The notes beneath the pieces were generated by a model, which did no database searches, was not told where the DNA came from, and saw nothing but the letters and a program-made list of their open reading frames with translations. The position numbers and the translations under genes are program-made. Positions 33 to 7,741 of a DNA stretch of 64,000 nt are shown piece after piece; the first letter of the stretch is position 1, and every line of letters starts with the position of its first letter. The stretch spans positions 1 to 64,000 of the forward strand of contig NZ_JAOVZT010000005.1 of assembly GCF_025716945.1 (NCBI RefSeq), written 5' to 3'. Source of the DNA: Geodermatophilus sp. YIM 151500 (lineage in GTDB: Bacteria; Actinomycetota; Actinomycetes; Mycobacteriales; Geodermatophilaceae).

Positions 33-1048
<1,016 letters not shown>

Positions 1049-1052
<4 letters not shown>

Positions 1053-2600: not shown

Positions 2601-2696
2601 GGAGGCGTCAGGGTGCCTGGTGGCCCCCGCGGCCTCTAAAGCCGACGTGGCCGAGCATCTCGGTCAGGCGGGTTCGATTCCCGTCCGCCTCCGCCA
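2601..2696 (+). tRNA. selC: tRNA-Sec with anticodon CUA (reads UAG)
   Basis: A 96-base gene including an encoded CCA. Its features are those of bacterial tRNA-Sec. The acceptor stem starts GGAGGCG and pairs with CGCCTCC (an eighth position is T opposite C). The D stem is long, 6 positions (GGGTGC / GCCCCC, one mismatch), with GG in its loop. The variable arm is long (GGCCGAG-CAT-CTCGGTC). The T arm is GCGGG-TTCGATT-CCCGT. The anticodon stem CGGC/GCCG encloses the seven-base loop CTCTAAA (2634-2640), giving anticodon CTA at 2636-2638. Standard tRNA-Sec has UCA for UGA; this one would read UAG. selD, selA and selB flank it, and the next gene has an in-frame TAG. Confidence 0.95.
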
Positions 2697-2867: not shown

Positions 2868-4556
2868 ATGACCGCACCTCCGGAACCGGTCGGCACCGTC
2901 CACGTCGTCGACCCCTCGCCACTGAACTGGTTGTTCATCACCTGGAACACCATGGAAGAGCCGATCCGGATCGACCAGGACGGCCGCACGGTCTACTCCC
3001 TGGCCGAGTCCTCGGAGTGGCTGGACGACGGGACGCTGGAGCTCGAGCTGCGCCGCGGCGTCCGCTTCCAGGACGGCGAGCACTTCACCGCGCACAACGT
3101 CAAGCAGAACTTCGACGAGATGCAGCGCTGGGCCGCCCCGCACCCGCCGGGCACCTGGCTCAACTTCCCGGCGCCGGAGTCCACCGCCGAGGTGGTCGAC
3201 GACCACACCCTGCGCTTCCACTTCCCCGGTCCCGACGGGCTGGCCATCGGCAAGTTCCGCGGCTTCCACATAGCCAGCAGCGCCTTCTGGGACGGCCCGG
3301 ACGCGCCGGGGTTCGGCTACAAGAAGCACGGCTCCGGCGAGGGGCACTGGTAGGTGATCGACGAGCCGGGCCCGTGGGGCACCGGTCCGTTCACCCTGGT
3401 CCAGGGTGCTTCGTCCATCACCACCCGCCACGTCCTGATGGCCGCCGAGCCGTACACGTCCAGCTGGCTCATCGAGAGCGAGCAGCGCGATCCGCAGGTC
3501 GTGCTGGAGGCCAACCGCGACCACTGGAACCGGGCCGACCGCGGCCCGCGGATCGAGCGCGCGGTCTTCCGCAACGACGTCGACCCCGCCGAGGCGCTCC
3601 GCCTGGTCTGCGACACCGAGGGCGAGGTCGACATCGTCACCGAGGTCTCGCCCGCCGACGCCCGGCGGGTGCAGGACTCCGCGCACGCCCGGCTGGTCGT
3701 CTCCGATGCCAACCGGGTGCTGGTCGGCATCGTCAACCGGGGCAGCGACGCGCCGCTGTCCGATGTGCACGTGCGGCGGGCGCTGAACATGGCCATCGAC
3801 CGGGAGGCGGTCGTCCGCGACGGCCTGCACGGCTACGCCTCGGTCATCCCCGCGATGACCCCGCCCTGGTGCAGCGGCTTCCCCGAGGGCGCCACGCCCT
3901 ACGAGCTCGATCGGGAGAAGGCGCGGGAGGCCTTCGCGACGGCGTCCTGGCCGGCCCGCCGGCCGCTGCGGATCGCCGCCGGGGAGAACTTCGCCGAGAT
4001 CGCGCACATGCTCGCCGCCGGCATCCGCTCGACGCTGGAGCTGAAGGTCGAGGTGCTCGTCGTCCCGGCCGACCAGCTGCCCGCAGGTGCGCGGGCGCTG
4101 GTGGAGAAGAAGCTGGACCTGCCGTGGGACGTGCTGGTGCACGGCTGGTTCGACCTCTCCTCCGAGGCGCCCCCGGCCGCGGTGCACCGGGAGTACTTCG
4201 GCCGGGACGGTGCCTTCCGCGCCGGGCCGCCGGACGAGGGCTTCGACGCGCTGTTCGACGAGATGAGGGTGCAACTGGGCGGCGAGGCGCTGGTCCGCGT
4301 GGCCGAGAAGATCGACGCCTACGTGCACGACCAGGCGCTCGCGCTGTTCGTGTGCGCCCCGCAGGCGCTCTACGCGGTCAACGAGCACGTGCAGTTCTCG
4401 CCCTACCGGACGACCTTCGAACTCGCGGAGGTCACCGTCGGAGAGCGGCACTGGTCGCGCACCGGTGGCGGCGGCGCGAGCCCGTCGGACCGCATGGCAC
4501 CGGGGACGGCCACGGCCAGGCCGGGCTTCGCCGGCGCGTCGGGCAACGCCTGCTGA
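2868..4556 (+). CDS. Family-5 extracellular solute-binding-like selenoprotein, UAG-encoded Sec at residue 162
   Basis: Two in-frame open segments are separated only by TAG at 3351-3353. Read through, they give 562 residues matching ABC-transporter solute-binding proteins of the oligopeptide/DppA class (SBP_bac_5): LELELRRGVRFQDGEHFTA early, and PGPWGTGPFTL directly after the TAG. Homology continues across the codon without gap or frame change (GEGHW-U-VIDEPGPWGTG). With tRNA-Sec(CUA) 170 bases upstream, selA/selB downstream and a hairpin at the SECIS position, I read TAG as selenocysteine U162. ATG 2868 is preceded by AGGGGAGA. There is no signal peptide or lipobox and no permease or ATPase gene nearby, so transport is doubtful and a cytoplasmic redox or binding role is possible. 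A true nonsense mutation is the alternative. Confidence 0.88.
3361..3390 (+). promoter_or_regulatory. Candidate bacterial SECIS hairpin after the UAG codon
   Basis: Stem 3361-3390: outer pairs ACG/CGT, one mismatch, GCCGG paired with CCGGT, a bulged A (3381), GCCC paired with GGGC, and an apical GTG (3374-3376). The apex lies 21 bases after the UAG, about where E. coli fdhF places its SelB-binding loop. It lies in coding sequence, as bacterial SECIS elements do. SelB binding is inferred from position and the G/U apical loop. Confidence 0.65.
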
Positions 4557-4658: not shown

Positions 4659-5975
4659 ATGACCGACGATCCGCGGCGGCTGGTGCCCCGCACCGACGCG
4701 CTGCTGGCCGAGCCACCCGTGGCGGCCGCCGCGCTGCGGCTGGGCCGCGACCTGGTCAAGGCCGCGGTGCAGGCCGCCCAGCAGCGGGTACGGGACGGCG
4801 AGCTGCCGCCGGACGGCGTGGTCGACGCCGTGCTGGCCTCGCTGCCGCAGCGGCCGAGCAGCCTGCGGCCGGTGCTCAACGCCACCGGCGTCGTCGTGCA
4901 CACCAACCTCGGCCGGGCCCCGCTGTCGGCCGCCGCCGTCGAGGCGGTGGTCGCCGCCGCCGGCACCACCGACGTCGAGCTCGACCTCGCCACCGGGCGG
5001 AGGGGTCCCCGCGGCGAGGGCGCGCTGGCCGCCGTGCGCGAGGCGGTGCCCGCGGCCGAGGCCGCGCTCGTGGTGAACAACTGCGCGGCCGCGCTCGCCC
5101 TGGTGGCCACGGCCCTGGGGCAGGGGCGCGAGCTCGTGCTCGCCCGTGGCGAGCTGGTCGAGATCGGCGACGGGTTCCGCATCCCCGACCTGCTCGTGGC
5201 CACGGGCGCCCGGTTGCGCGAGGTGGGGACGACGAACCGGGTGACCCTCGACGACTACCGCGACGCCCTGCACGAGGAGACCGGTGCGGTGCTCAAGGTG
5301 CACCCGTCGAACTTCGTCGTCCGGGGCTTCACCCGGGCCGTGCCGGTGGCCGAGCTCGCCGTCGCGCTGGCCGGCAGCGGCGTCCCGCTGGTCGCCGACA
5401 TCGGCTCCGGCCTGCTGCGCCCGCACCCCGCGCTGCCCGACGAGCCGGACCTGCAGACCACCCTGACCGCCGGCGCCGATCTGGTCCTGGCCAGCGGGGA
5501 CAAGCTGCTCGGCGGACCGCAGGCCGGCCTCGTGCTGGGCCGCGCCGACCTGGTCAAGCGGCTGCGCCGGCATCCGCTGTACCGGGCGTTCCGGGTCGAC
5601 AAGACGACCCTCGCGGCGCTCGAGGCCACGCTGCGCGGGCCGCAGCCGCCGGTCCTGCGGATGCTCGCCGCCGACGCGGCCGGGCTGCGCGCCCGCGCCG
5701 AGGCGCTGGCCGCGCGGCTGGCCGCCGAGGGCGTCGACGCGGCGGCGGTCGCCTCCGGGGCGCGGGTGGGCGGGGGCGGGGCCCCCGAGCAGCCGCTGCC
5801 CAGCGCCGCCCTGGCGCTGCCCGCCACGTTCGCCGAGCCGCTGCGCCTGGGCACGCCCCCGGTGGTCGGCTACCTCGCCGACGACCGCACGCTCCTGGAC
5901 CTGCGCAGCCTGCCGCCGTCGGACGACGACGCGCTCGCCGCCGCGGTGCTGGACGTCGCCCGGCGGTGCACGTGA
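4659..5975 (+). CDS. selA: L-seryl-tRNA(Sec) selenium transferase
   Basis: SelA converts Ser-tRNA(Sec) to Sec-tRNA(Sec) using selenophosphate, with pyridoxal phosphate. The 438-residue product has the family N-terminal helical domain (PRTDALLAEP), the NATGVVVHTNLGRAPLS motif, and the PLP lysine in SGDKLLGGPQAGL (K282). It ends in a typical C-terminal domain (RSLPPSDDDALAAAV). The ATG at 4659 starts MTDDPRRLVPRTD; the longer upstream reading only translates the GGTGCACCC repeat. The selB GTG overlaps the selA stop by 4 bases, so they are translationally coupled. Its tRNA substrate is the CUA-anticodon tRNA-Sec about 2 kb upstream. Confidence 0.97.
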   Translation: MTDDPRRLVPRTDALLAEPPVAAAALRLGRDLVKAAVQAAQQRVRDGELPPDGVVDAVLASLPQRPSSLRPVLNATGVVVHTNLGRAPLSAAAVEAVVAAAGTTDVELDLATGRRGPRGEGALAAVREAVPAAEAALVVNNCAAALALVATALGQGRELVLARGELVEIGDGFRIPDLLVATGARLREVGTTNRVTLDDYRDALHEETGAVLKVHPSNFVVRGFTRAVPVAELAVALAGSGVPLVADIGSGLLRPHPALPDEPDLQTTLTAGADLVLASGDKLLGGPQAGLVLGRADLVKRLRRHPLYRAFRVDKTTLAALEATLRGPQPPVLRMLAADAAGLRARAEALAARLAAEGVDAAAVASGARVGGGGAPEQPLPSAALALPATFAEPLRLGTPPVVGYLADDRTLLDLRSLPPSDDDALAAAVLDVARRCT

Positions 5976-7741
5976 CCCCGACGGCGACGGGCGGCATGGA
6001 CGTCATCGCGACCGCCGGCCACGTCGACCACGGCAAGTCGGCGCTCGTGCGCGCGCTCACCGGCATGGAGCCCGACCGGTGGGAGGAGGAGCGCCGCCGC
6101 GGGCTGACCATCGACCTGGGTTTCGCCTGGACGACGCTGCCCTCGGGCCGGCGGCTGGCGGTGGTCGACGTCCCCGGCCACGAGCGGTTCGTCGGCAACA
6201 TGCTCGCCGGCGTCGGCTCGGTGCCGGCGGCGCTGGTGGTCGTCGCCGCGGACGACGGCTGGTCGGCGCAGACCGCCGAGCACGTCGCGGTGCTCGACGC
6301 GCTGGGGGTGCGGCACGCGCTGCTCGCGGTGACCAAGGCCGACCTGGCTGATCCCGCTCCGGTGCTGGCCGACGTCCGGGAGCGGCTCGCCGCCACGTCG
6401 ATGGGTGCGGTGCCCGGGATCGCGGTGAGCGCGCTGACCGGGGCCGGGGTGCCGGAGCTGGTCGCGGCGCTGGAGCGGCTGCTCGCCGGCCTGCCCCCGG
6501 CCGACCCGGCCGCGCCGGTGCGGTTGTGGATCGACCGCGCCTTCACGATCCGCGGCGCCGGAACGGTGGTCACCGGCACGCTGGCCGCGGGCACCGTGAG
6601 GGTCGGCGACCGGCTGCTGCTCGGGGACCGCGACGTGGTCGTGCGCGGTCTGCAGTCGCTGGGGGAGCCGGTCGAGACGGCCGCGGCCACGGCCCGCGTG
6701 GCGCTCAACCTGCGCGGGGTCGCCGTCGAGGACCTCCGCCGCGGCGACGCGCTGCTCACCCCGGGCGCCTTCCGCCGCACCTCGCTGGTCGACGGAACGC
6801 TGGCCGGGCGGGCGGCGGGCCGGCTGCCGGCCGAGCCGGTGGTGCACGTCGGCTCCGCGGCGGTGGGTGCGCGGCTGCGCCCGCTGGACGGCGCGGCCGT
6901 GCGGCTGCGGCTGGCTGCGCCGCTGCCGCTGCGGGTGGGGGACCGGCTGCTGCTGCGGGACCCGGGTGCGCGGCGGGTGGTCGGCGCCGACGTCCGGGAC
7001 GTCGACCCGCCGGAGCTGCGGCGGCGCGGCGCGGCGCGGGTGCGGGCGGGCGAGCTCGCCGCGCAGGAGCCGGGCGCCGCCGGGGCGGCGGCCGACCTGG
7101 CCCGCCGCCGGGTGGTGCGCGCCGACGACTTCTCGGCGATGGGCTGGCCGGTGCCGGACGGGGCGACCGCGGTCGGGCCGTGGCTGCTGGCCGCGGGCCT
7201 GGTCGACGAGCTCGCCGTCCGAGTGCCGCCGCTGGTGGGCGCCTACCGCCAGCGGCACCCGCTGGAGCCGGGGCCGCCGGTCGAGGTGGTGCGCCGCGAG
7301 CTCGACCTGCCCGTCGCCGAGCTGGTCGCCGCCGTGGTCCGCCCGCCGCTGGCGCTGCGAGACGGTCGGGTGACCGCAGCGAGCGCCGCGCTGCCCGACA
7401 GGGTGCAGAAGGCGGTCGACGCGGTCCGGGCGCGGCTGGCCGCCGATCCGTTCGCCGCGCCGGAGGCCGGTGAGCTGGGAGCCGCCGGCCTGGGGGTGCG
7501 GGAGCTGGCCGCGGCGGTGCGCGACGGCCAGCTGCTGCGCATCGCCGAGGGCGTCTACCTGGCGCCGGACGTCGAGGCCGAGGCGCGATCGCGGCTCGCA
7601 GGGCTGCCGCAACCGTTCACGCTCAGCCAGGCCCGCCGGGCGTGGGGGACCACCCGCCGGGTGGCCGTGCCGTTGGCCGAGTGGCTCGACGCCCGGGGCG
7701 TCACGCAGCGGCTGCCCGACAACACCCGCCGCCTGCGCTGA
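5972..7741 (+). CDS. selB: Selenocysteine-specific elongation factor SelB
   Basis: SelB carries Sec-tRNA and GTP to the ribosome and binds the SECIS hairpin. About 589 residues, close to the family length. GTPase motifs are AGHVDHGKS (G1), DVPGHERFV (G3) and TKAD (G4), followed by EF-Tu-like beta-barrel domains and C-terminal winged helices (about 350 to the end, finishing ARRAWGTTRRVAVPLAEWLD). The GTG at 5972 overlaps the selA stop (GTGA). An ATG at 5996 (MDVIATAGHVDHGK) aligns better with most SelB N-termini and is an equally good start. This factor would have to work with a UAG-reading tRNA here, so codon identity lies in the tRNA and not in SelB. Confidence 0.96.
   Translation: MTPTATGGMDVIATAGHVDHGKSALVRALTGMEPDRWEEERRRGLTIDLGFAWTTLPSGRRLAVVDVPGHERFVGNMLAGVGSVPAALVVVAADDGWSAQTAEHVAVLDALGVRHALLAVTKADLADPAPVLADVRERLAATSMGAVPGIAVSALTGAGVPELVAALERLLAGLPPADPAAPVRLWIDRAFTIRGAGTVVTGTLAAGTVRVGDRLLLGDRDVVVRGLQSLGEPVETAAATARVALNLRGVAVEDLRRGDALLTPGAFRRTSLVDGTLAGRAAGRLPAEPVVHVGSAAVGARLRPLDGAAVRLRLAAPLPLRVGDRLLLRDPGARRVVGADVRDVDPPELRRRGAARVRAGELAAQEPGAAGAAADLARRRVVRADDFSAMGWPVPDGATAVGPWLLAAGLVDELAVRVPPLVGAYRQRHPLEPGPPVEVVRRELDLPVAELVAAVVRPPLALRDGRVTAASAALPDRVQKAVDAVRARLAADPFAAPEAGELGAAGLGVRELAAAVRDGQLLRIAEGVYLAPDVEAEARSRLAGLPQPFTLSQARRAWGTTRRVAVPLAEWLDARGVTQRLPDNTRRLR

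What the first reader, a model, noticed from the sequence alone, without database searches (positions are those of the whole stretch)
2634..2640. tRNA-Sec carries anticodon CUA and so reads UAG, not UGA
The seven-base loop CTCTAAA between stem arms CGGC and GCCG gives CUA at 2636-2638. The 96-base tRNA has the long D stem, long variable arm, 5-bp T stem and encoded CCA of tRNA-Sec, and selD, selA and selB flank it. UAG-reading tRNA-Sec and UAG-directed selenoprotein synthesis were reported for Geodermatophilus and Blastococcus (Mukai and co-workers, 2016), so the phenomenon has precedent. This locus shows a complete cassette with its target next door.
Basis: partly seen in the sequence, partly recalled or inferred. 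Interest (0 to 1): 0.95.

Follow-up and report, generated by a model that had tools for sequence, protein, structure and literature searches.

The report
UAG-reading selenocysteine tRNA with its target
This soil-bacterium genome appears to use the stop codon UAG, instead of the usual UGA, to insert selenocysteine; that trick was already reported for this bacterial family, but here the switch from UGA to UAG can be traced at the same gene, and one related genome seems to use both codons.

Summary
The tRNA at 2601-2696 is a true tRNA-Sec (Rfam 66.4 bits) with anticodon CUA at 2636-2638. It is the only tRNA-Sec in a 99.8% complete genome and lies in a selD / tRNA / target / selA / selB locus. The target is a substrate-binding-protein-like gene (2868-4556) with UAG at 3351-3353. 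Formate dehydrogenase and UGSC genes elsewhere in the genome also have UAG; no UGA selenoprotein was found. Pyrrolysine is excluded (no PylS).

The phenomenon is known: UAG-directed Sec in Geodermatophilaceae (Mukai et al. 2016; confirmed computationally 2017). This is a new member, not a new kind.

Three things go beyond the papers I could read. (1) CUA is near family-wide and arose once; genera g6-g8 (metagenome-assembled) keep UCA, and in one of them the orthologous target, in the same synteny, carries UGA. (2) The target belongs to a large selenoprotein family: 61 of 61 alignable loci have a stop at this site. (3) One Geodermatophilus genome carries both the CUA tRNA with UAG genes and an acquired UCA tRNA-Sec beside a UGA selenoprotein gene, so it may use two Sec codons. 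Nothing here was shown by experiment.

The parts
2601..2696 (+). tRNA-Sec gene (selC), 96 bases with encoded CCA
   Evidence: RF01852 66.4 bits, whole model; ARAGORN same span
2636..2638 (+). anticodon CUA, complementary to UAG
   Evidence: direct reading; ARAGORN position 36
2868..4556 (+). target selenoprotein: SBP_bac_5-like protein of 562 residues, Sec at residue 162; no signal peptide seen by eye
   Evidence: PF00496 E 2.2e-43; open through the UAG; 61 of 61 alignable homologous loci have a stop at the same site
3351..3353 (+). UAG codon read as Sec (motif GEGHW-U-VIDEPGPW)
   Evidence: only UAG in the window with a convincing in-frame continuation
3354..3398 (+). SECIS-like hairpin overlapping the coding sequence, apical loop about 20 nt after the UAG
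   Evidence: fold -22.3 kcal/mol; raised synonymous-codon conservation just after the Sec codon in homologs; but not more stable than synonymous shuffles
33..1052 (-). selD, selenophosphate synthase (start codon inferred)
   Evidence: TIGR00476 386 bits, cut-off 125
4659..5975 (+). selA, Sec synthase
   Evidence: TIGR00474 424.8 bits, cut-off 267.9
5972..7741 (+). selB, Sec-specific elongation factor
   Evidence: TIGR00475 281.9 bits, cut-off 242

Best explanation
The locus is the complete selenocysteine system of a Geodermatophilaceae bacterium whose Sec codon has changed from UGA to UAG. SelD makes selenophosphate. Seryl-tRNA synthetase and SelA turn Ser-tRNA-Sec(CUA) into Sec-tRNA-Sec(CUA). 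SelB carries it to ribosomes at a UAG that is followed by a SECIS-type hairpin, and Sec is inserted there, while UAG elsewhere still terminates. Shown here: the genes, the anticodon, the absence of any other tRNA-Sec, three UAG selenoprotein genes in the genome, codon and anticodon agreement across the family, and a single origin of CUA on a SelA tree. Inferred: charging, SelB binding, the SECIS function, and actual Sec insertion.
For: tRNA-Sec by covariance model; sole tRNA-Sec in the genome; selD, selA, selB. Target with in-frame UAG; 61 of 61 alignable homologous loci have a stop at that residue: 49 TGA, 11 TAG (all Geodermatophilaceae), 1 TAA. Own formate dehydrogenase (NQARI*HSATV) and UGSC protein (VGD*GSC) have TAG at the known Sec site. 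In CUA genomes all 74 stop-interrupted UGSC hits are TAG and none TGA. In UCA genera the SBP (G075) has TGA at the Sec site and so has formate dehydrogenase in G075 and G076, with a TGA-interrupted hit in G073 too. CUA is one clade with support 100/100 and one change on the SelA tree. PylS absent.
Against: No expression, aminoacylation or selenium-labelling data here. The hairpin after the UAG is not significantly more stable than synonymous shuffles (0.13 of shuffles as low), and RNAalifold supports only a 4-bp stem, one pair with compensatory change. The UCA genera g6-g8 are represented by metagenome-assembled or fragmented genomes, some with the locus cut by contig ends.
Confidence: 0.95

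Rival explanations
1. The tRNA is a pyrrolysine tRNA, as ARAGORN's label says, and UAG encodes pyrrolysine.
For: ARAGORN labels it tRNA-Pyl because of the CUA anticodon.
Against: It matches the tRNA-Sec covariance model end to end; no PylS at its cut-off in any of 115 family genomes and none at all in this genome; sel genes flank it; UAG sites align with known Sec sites of formate dehydrogenase and UGSC.
Confidence: 0.01
2. The tRNA is an amber suppressor that inserts serine (not converted by SelA), so UAG is read through as Ser.
For: SerRS recognises tRNA-Sec backbones and none of the Sec enzymes bind the anticodon arm (review PMC7609411).
Against: selA and selB, mostly with selD, are retained next to it in about 100 loci; the UAG sites are those where UGA relatives have the Sec codon.
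Confidence: 0.02
3. The UAG in the SBP-like gene is a true stop, and the gene is a pseudogene or two separate genes.
For: Standard reading gives two ORFs, up to 3353 and from 3354 to 4556.
Against: All alignable homologs in Actinomycetota, Bacillota and others have a stop exactly there with the same flanking motif; coding composition continues through the UAG.
Confidence: 0.02

Closest known systems
UAG-decoding tRNA-Sec and UAG-directed selenoproteins of Geodermatophilus and Blastococcus (Mukai et al. 2016, known to me here through PMC5330540 and PMC5133445)
   Same: Same family, same CUA anticodon, same selenoproteins (formate dehydrogenase, UGSC).
   Different: Those texts name formate dehydrogenase, UGSC and AhpC; the SBP-like target next to the tRNA is not among them, and they do not map the UCA to CUA switch. 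The 2016 paper itself is not held, so I could not read it.
Canonical bacterial UGA Sec system (selABCD)
   Same: Same four genes and SECIS-type recoding; UCA genera of the family have the same gene order.
   Different: Codon UAG in place of UGA; anticodon arm CGGC-CTCTAAA-GCCG in place of CGGT-CTTCAAA-ACCG.
SBP_bac_5 solute-binding proteins (NikA, DppA, OppA)
   Same: Pfam match and fold (Z 32.5 to 5u4o, rmsd 2.5 over 452 residues).
   Different: Carries a Sec codon; no signal peptide seen at the N-terminus; no ABC permease or ATPase noticed beside it in the window or the four Bacillota loci looked at.
ABC transporter selenoproteins SaoX and SaoB (listed in PMC13188914)
   Same: Substrate-binding proteins with Sec.
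   Different: Neither model is among the NCBIfam matches of the target at E 1e-3.

Membership tests
tRNA-Sec (RF01852) | Score over the gathering cut-off along the whole covariance model | tested here: met
   66.4 bits against 47, model 1-91
tRNA-Sec (RF01852) | Charging with Ser and conversion to Sec by SelA | not testable with these tools
   The structural elements (long D stem, long variable arm, G73) are in the alignment; charging needs an experiment
UAG-directed Sec system of Geodermatophilaceae | Anticodon CUA and no UCA tRNA-Sec | tested here: met
UAG-directed Sec system of Geodermatophilaceae | Selenoprotein genes with UAG at the Sec site | tested here: met
   SBP-like, formate dehydrogenase, UGSC
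UAG-directed Sec system of Geodermatophilaceae | Sec shown in the protein | not testable with these tools
   Reported for relatives; not for this organism
Pyrrolysine system | Pyrrolysyl-tRNA synthetase PylS | tested here: not met
   No match in this genome; none over the cut-off in 115 genomes
SBP_bac_5 (PF00496) | Pfam gathering score and fold | tested here: met
   149.3 bits against 32.4; fold
ABC importer solute-binding protein (by function) | Secretion signal and partner permease/ATPase | tested here: inconclusive
   N-terminus MTAPPEPVGTVHVVDPSPLNW shows no signal by eye, no predictor run; no ABC genes noticed nearby
SaoX / SaoB selenoproteins | Match to NF040735 / NF040727 | tested here: not met
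   Not among NCBIfam matches at E 1e-3

The most novel reading that the evidence does not exclude
One Geodermatophilus genome (G060) decodes two different stop codons as Sec at once: UAG through the native CUA tRNA-Sec (formate dehydrogenase and UGSC genes) and UGA through a horizontally acquired, divergent UCA tRNA-Sec lying about 315 bp from an AhpD-like gene with a CxxU motif encoded by UGA. Together with the orthologous SBP gene (UGA in a UCA genus, UAG in the CUA clade), this gives a natural record of a Sec-codon switch and of its partial re-invasion.
Probability: 0.55. Interest if true: 0.75.

Novelty: new member of a known kind. Interest (0 to 1): 0.5.

Why it matters
UAG-coded Sec in this family is known, so this locus alone adds one species and one selenoprotein family. 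The comparison matters more: genera g6-g8 keep UCA and UGA while the rest of the family has CUA and UAG, in the same gene order and at the same residue of the same gene. That makes the question of how a recoded codon changes identity testable with native pieces (swap tRNA, codon and SECIS between the two). UAG-containing selenoprotein genes in this family are probably annotated as broken genes.

Tried and rejected
Pyrrolysine (no PylS). A second tRNA-Sec in this genome (none). CUA tRNA-Sec outside the family: one hit in the order sample, genome G233, rejected as contamination because its contig carries selA and selD 79-86% identical to this genome's while another contig has a UCA tRNA-Sec beside a 62% selA. 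A TGA in a formate dehydrogenase hit of CUA genome G081: tblastn shows no stop at the Sec column there and the gene aligns in two pieces. Proof of the SECIS by folding energy: not significant against synonymous shuffles; RNAalifold gave only a 4-bp stem, so I rely on synonymous-codon conservation. Cys forms of the SBP-like family: none found. Mobility of the G060 UGA cassette: no relative in viral contigs, only the tRNA part matched plasmids. SelB copy number in G060 was not searched genome-wide.

Full report
OBSERVATION. The tRNA gene is at 2601-2696 on the + strand. Its anticodon loop CTCTAAA lies at 2634-2640 between CGGC and GCCG, so CTA is at 2636-2638. The Rfam tRNA-Sec model matches end to end with 66.4 bits (cut-off 47). 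ARAGORN finds the same 96 bases and the same anticodon but calls it tRNA-Pyl. The whole genome (4.77 Mb, 53 contigs, 99.8% complete) holds no other tRNA-Sec: the remaining model hits are Ser, Leu, Thr, Met and Gly tRNAs.

LOCUS. selD lies upstream on the other strand (33-1052). Downstream on the + strand come an SBP_bac_5-like gene (2868-4556), selA (4659-5975) and selB (5972-7741); all three sel genes pass NCBIfam cut-offs. The SBP-like gene is interrupted by a UAG at 3351-3353 in the motif GEGHW*VIDEPGPW. Of all in-frame UAGs in the window this is the only one with convincing coding on both sides. UAG still appears as a terminator of other genes; a rough gene count gives 33 TGA and 4 TAG stops, one of the four being this site.

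TARGET FAMILY. Homologs were fetched from 64 loci in named genomes, in Geodermatophilaceae, Pseudonocardia, Rubrobacter, Solirubrobacterales, Bacillus and others. In all 61 loci where the site could be aligned, the codon is a stop: 49 TGA, 11 TAG and 1 TAA; every TAG is from Geodermatophilaceae. The other three loci were too short or frameshifted at the site. No Cys form was seen. The gene lies beside sel genes also in Pseudonocardia, and next to selB in two alphaproteobacterial loci, one of them an unannotated stretch of a Methylobacterium plasmid. The predicted structure (mean pLDDT 86.5) is a family-5 solute-binding fold, best match 5u4o with Z 32.5 and rmsd 2.5 over 452 residues; Sec 162 sits in a low-confidence loop (block pLDDT 56-67). 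No signal peptide is visible by eye and no ABC permease was noticed beside it, so its role is open; a cytosolic ligand-binding selenoprotein is my guess.

RECODING SIGNAL. A hairpin can form right after the UAG with its apical loop about 20 nt downstream, within the spacing described for bacterial SECIS (16-37 nt, PMC10778597). Its energy is not unusual against synonymous shuffles (0.13 of shuffles as low in the window) and covariation is weak. But the 12-codon windows that overlap the codons just after the Sec codon have the highest synonymous-codon conservation of the gene in all 49 sequences together, in Bacillota alone and in UGA-using Actinomycetota alone. In low-GC Bacillota (GC3 0.29-0.47) codons +6 and +7 stay GGC CCG nearly throughout. 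This supports an RNA element overlapping the coding sequence.

OTHER SELENOPROTEINS. This genome has TAG at the Sec site of formate dehydrogenase (NQARI*HSATVPG, contig C52) and of a UGSC protein (VGD*GSC, contig C11), each followed by a hairpin. In the family, all 74 stop-interrupted UGSC hits are TAG, and so are the listed formate dehydrogenase hits that cover the Sec site with a stop. The whole genome was not scanned, so further selenoproteins may exist.

EVOLUTION OF THE CODON. Of 115 family genomes, 111 have a tRNA-Sec. I read the genes at 114 loci: CUA in genera g1-g5 and g9-g12, UCA in g6, g7 and g8, plus one extra UCA gene in G060. Apart from the anticodon, the loop-closing pair of the anticodon stem differs between the groups, U-A against C-G. 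The order selD, tRNA, selA, selB is conserved in both groups where contigs are long enough. On a SelA tree of 59 rows the CUA sequences are one clade (100/100) and one change suffices. In an order-wide sample the CUA pattern occurs in 77 family genomes and in one other, a contaminated MAG. In G075 (UCA) the SBP-like gene sits in the same place, between tRNA and selA, and has TGA where this window has TAG. In G076 (UCA) a more distant SBP homolog has TAA there, with one more stop later, so it is likely decaying or a consensus error. UAA is the one-step intermediate between UGA and UAG, but one MAG proves nothing.

TWO SEC CODES IN ONE GENOME. G060, a genome of genus g4 (Geodermatophilus, by its match with named records), has the native CUA locus on contig C11 and TAG in its formate dehydrogenase and UGSC genes. 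At the end of contig C17 lies a lower-GC stretch (0.64 in the first 5 kb, against about 0.77) with a divergent UCA tRNA-Sec. About 315 bp away starts a CMD/AhpD-like gene with in-frame TGA at codon 98, aligned with the second Cys of the CxxC motif of relatives. A transposase gene is nearby. Bases 48-52 kb of the contig are collinear with five other genomes of the genus, so the contig belongs to the genus, though a chimeric join at the island is not excluded. G060 has a single SelA, which would have to serve both tRNAs. This is inference from sequence.

COMPARISON WITH WHAT IS KNOWN. PMC5330540 states that Mukai et al. 2016 reported CUA tRNA-Sec in Geodermatophilaceae with UAG formate dehydrogenases and UGSC proteins, and adds AhpC in Blastococcus saxobsidens. 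PMC5133445 repeats UAG for Sec in Blastococcus. The 2016 paper is not in the library; that it confirmed Sec by labelling or mass spectrometry is from my own memory of its abstract. A 2026 review of prokaryotic selenoproteins lists SaoX and SaoB but shows no SBP_bac_5 family in my term searches. I therefore rate the finding a new member of a known kind, with the switch map, the SBP-like family and the dual-code genome as possible additions.

Noticed in passing
L057:1169-2157 (G060:C17): Geodermatophilus genome with an acquired UCA tRNA-Sec next to a UGA-coded AhpD-like gene (CxxU), besides its native CUA system; possible dual Sec code.
   Followed up: yes
L217:3179-3181 (G076:C70): SBP-like gene of a UCA genome with TAA at the Sec site and one further in-frame stop; decaying gene, consensus error, or a trace of the UGA-UAA-UAG path.
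   Followed up: partly
L358:6001-7470 (Methylobacterium radiotolerans plasmid pNYY1_1): Unannotated UGA SBP-like selenoprotein gene directly upstream of selB on a plasmid typed as mobilizable.
   Followed up: partly
L167, L168 (G111:C255): One genome with two CUA tRNA-Sec / selA / selB / selD loci about 59 kb apart on one contig.
   Followed up: no
window 2601-2608 and 2685-2692: The eighth acceptor pair is a U-C mismatch in this tRNA and in the others of the family that I read, so the acceptor branch has 12 standard pairs plus a mismatch.
   Followed up: no
L356 (G233:C194): A MAG of another family contains a Geodermatophilaceae-like sel contig: probable contamination in the collection.
   Followed up: yes
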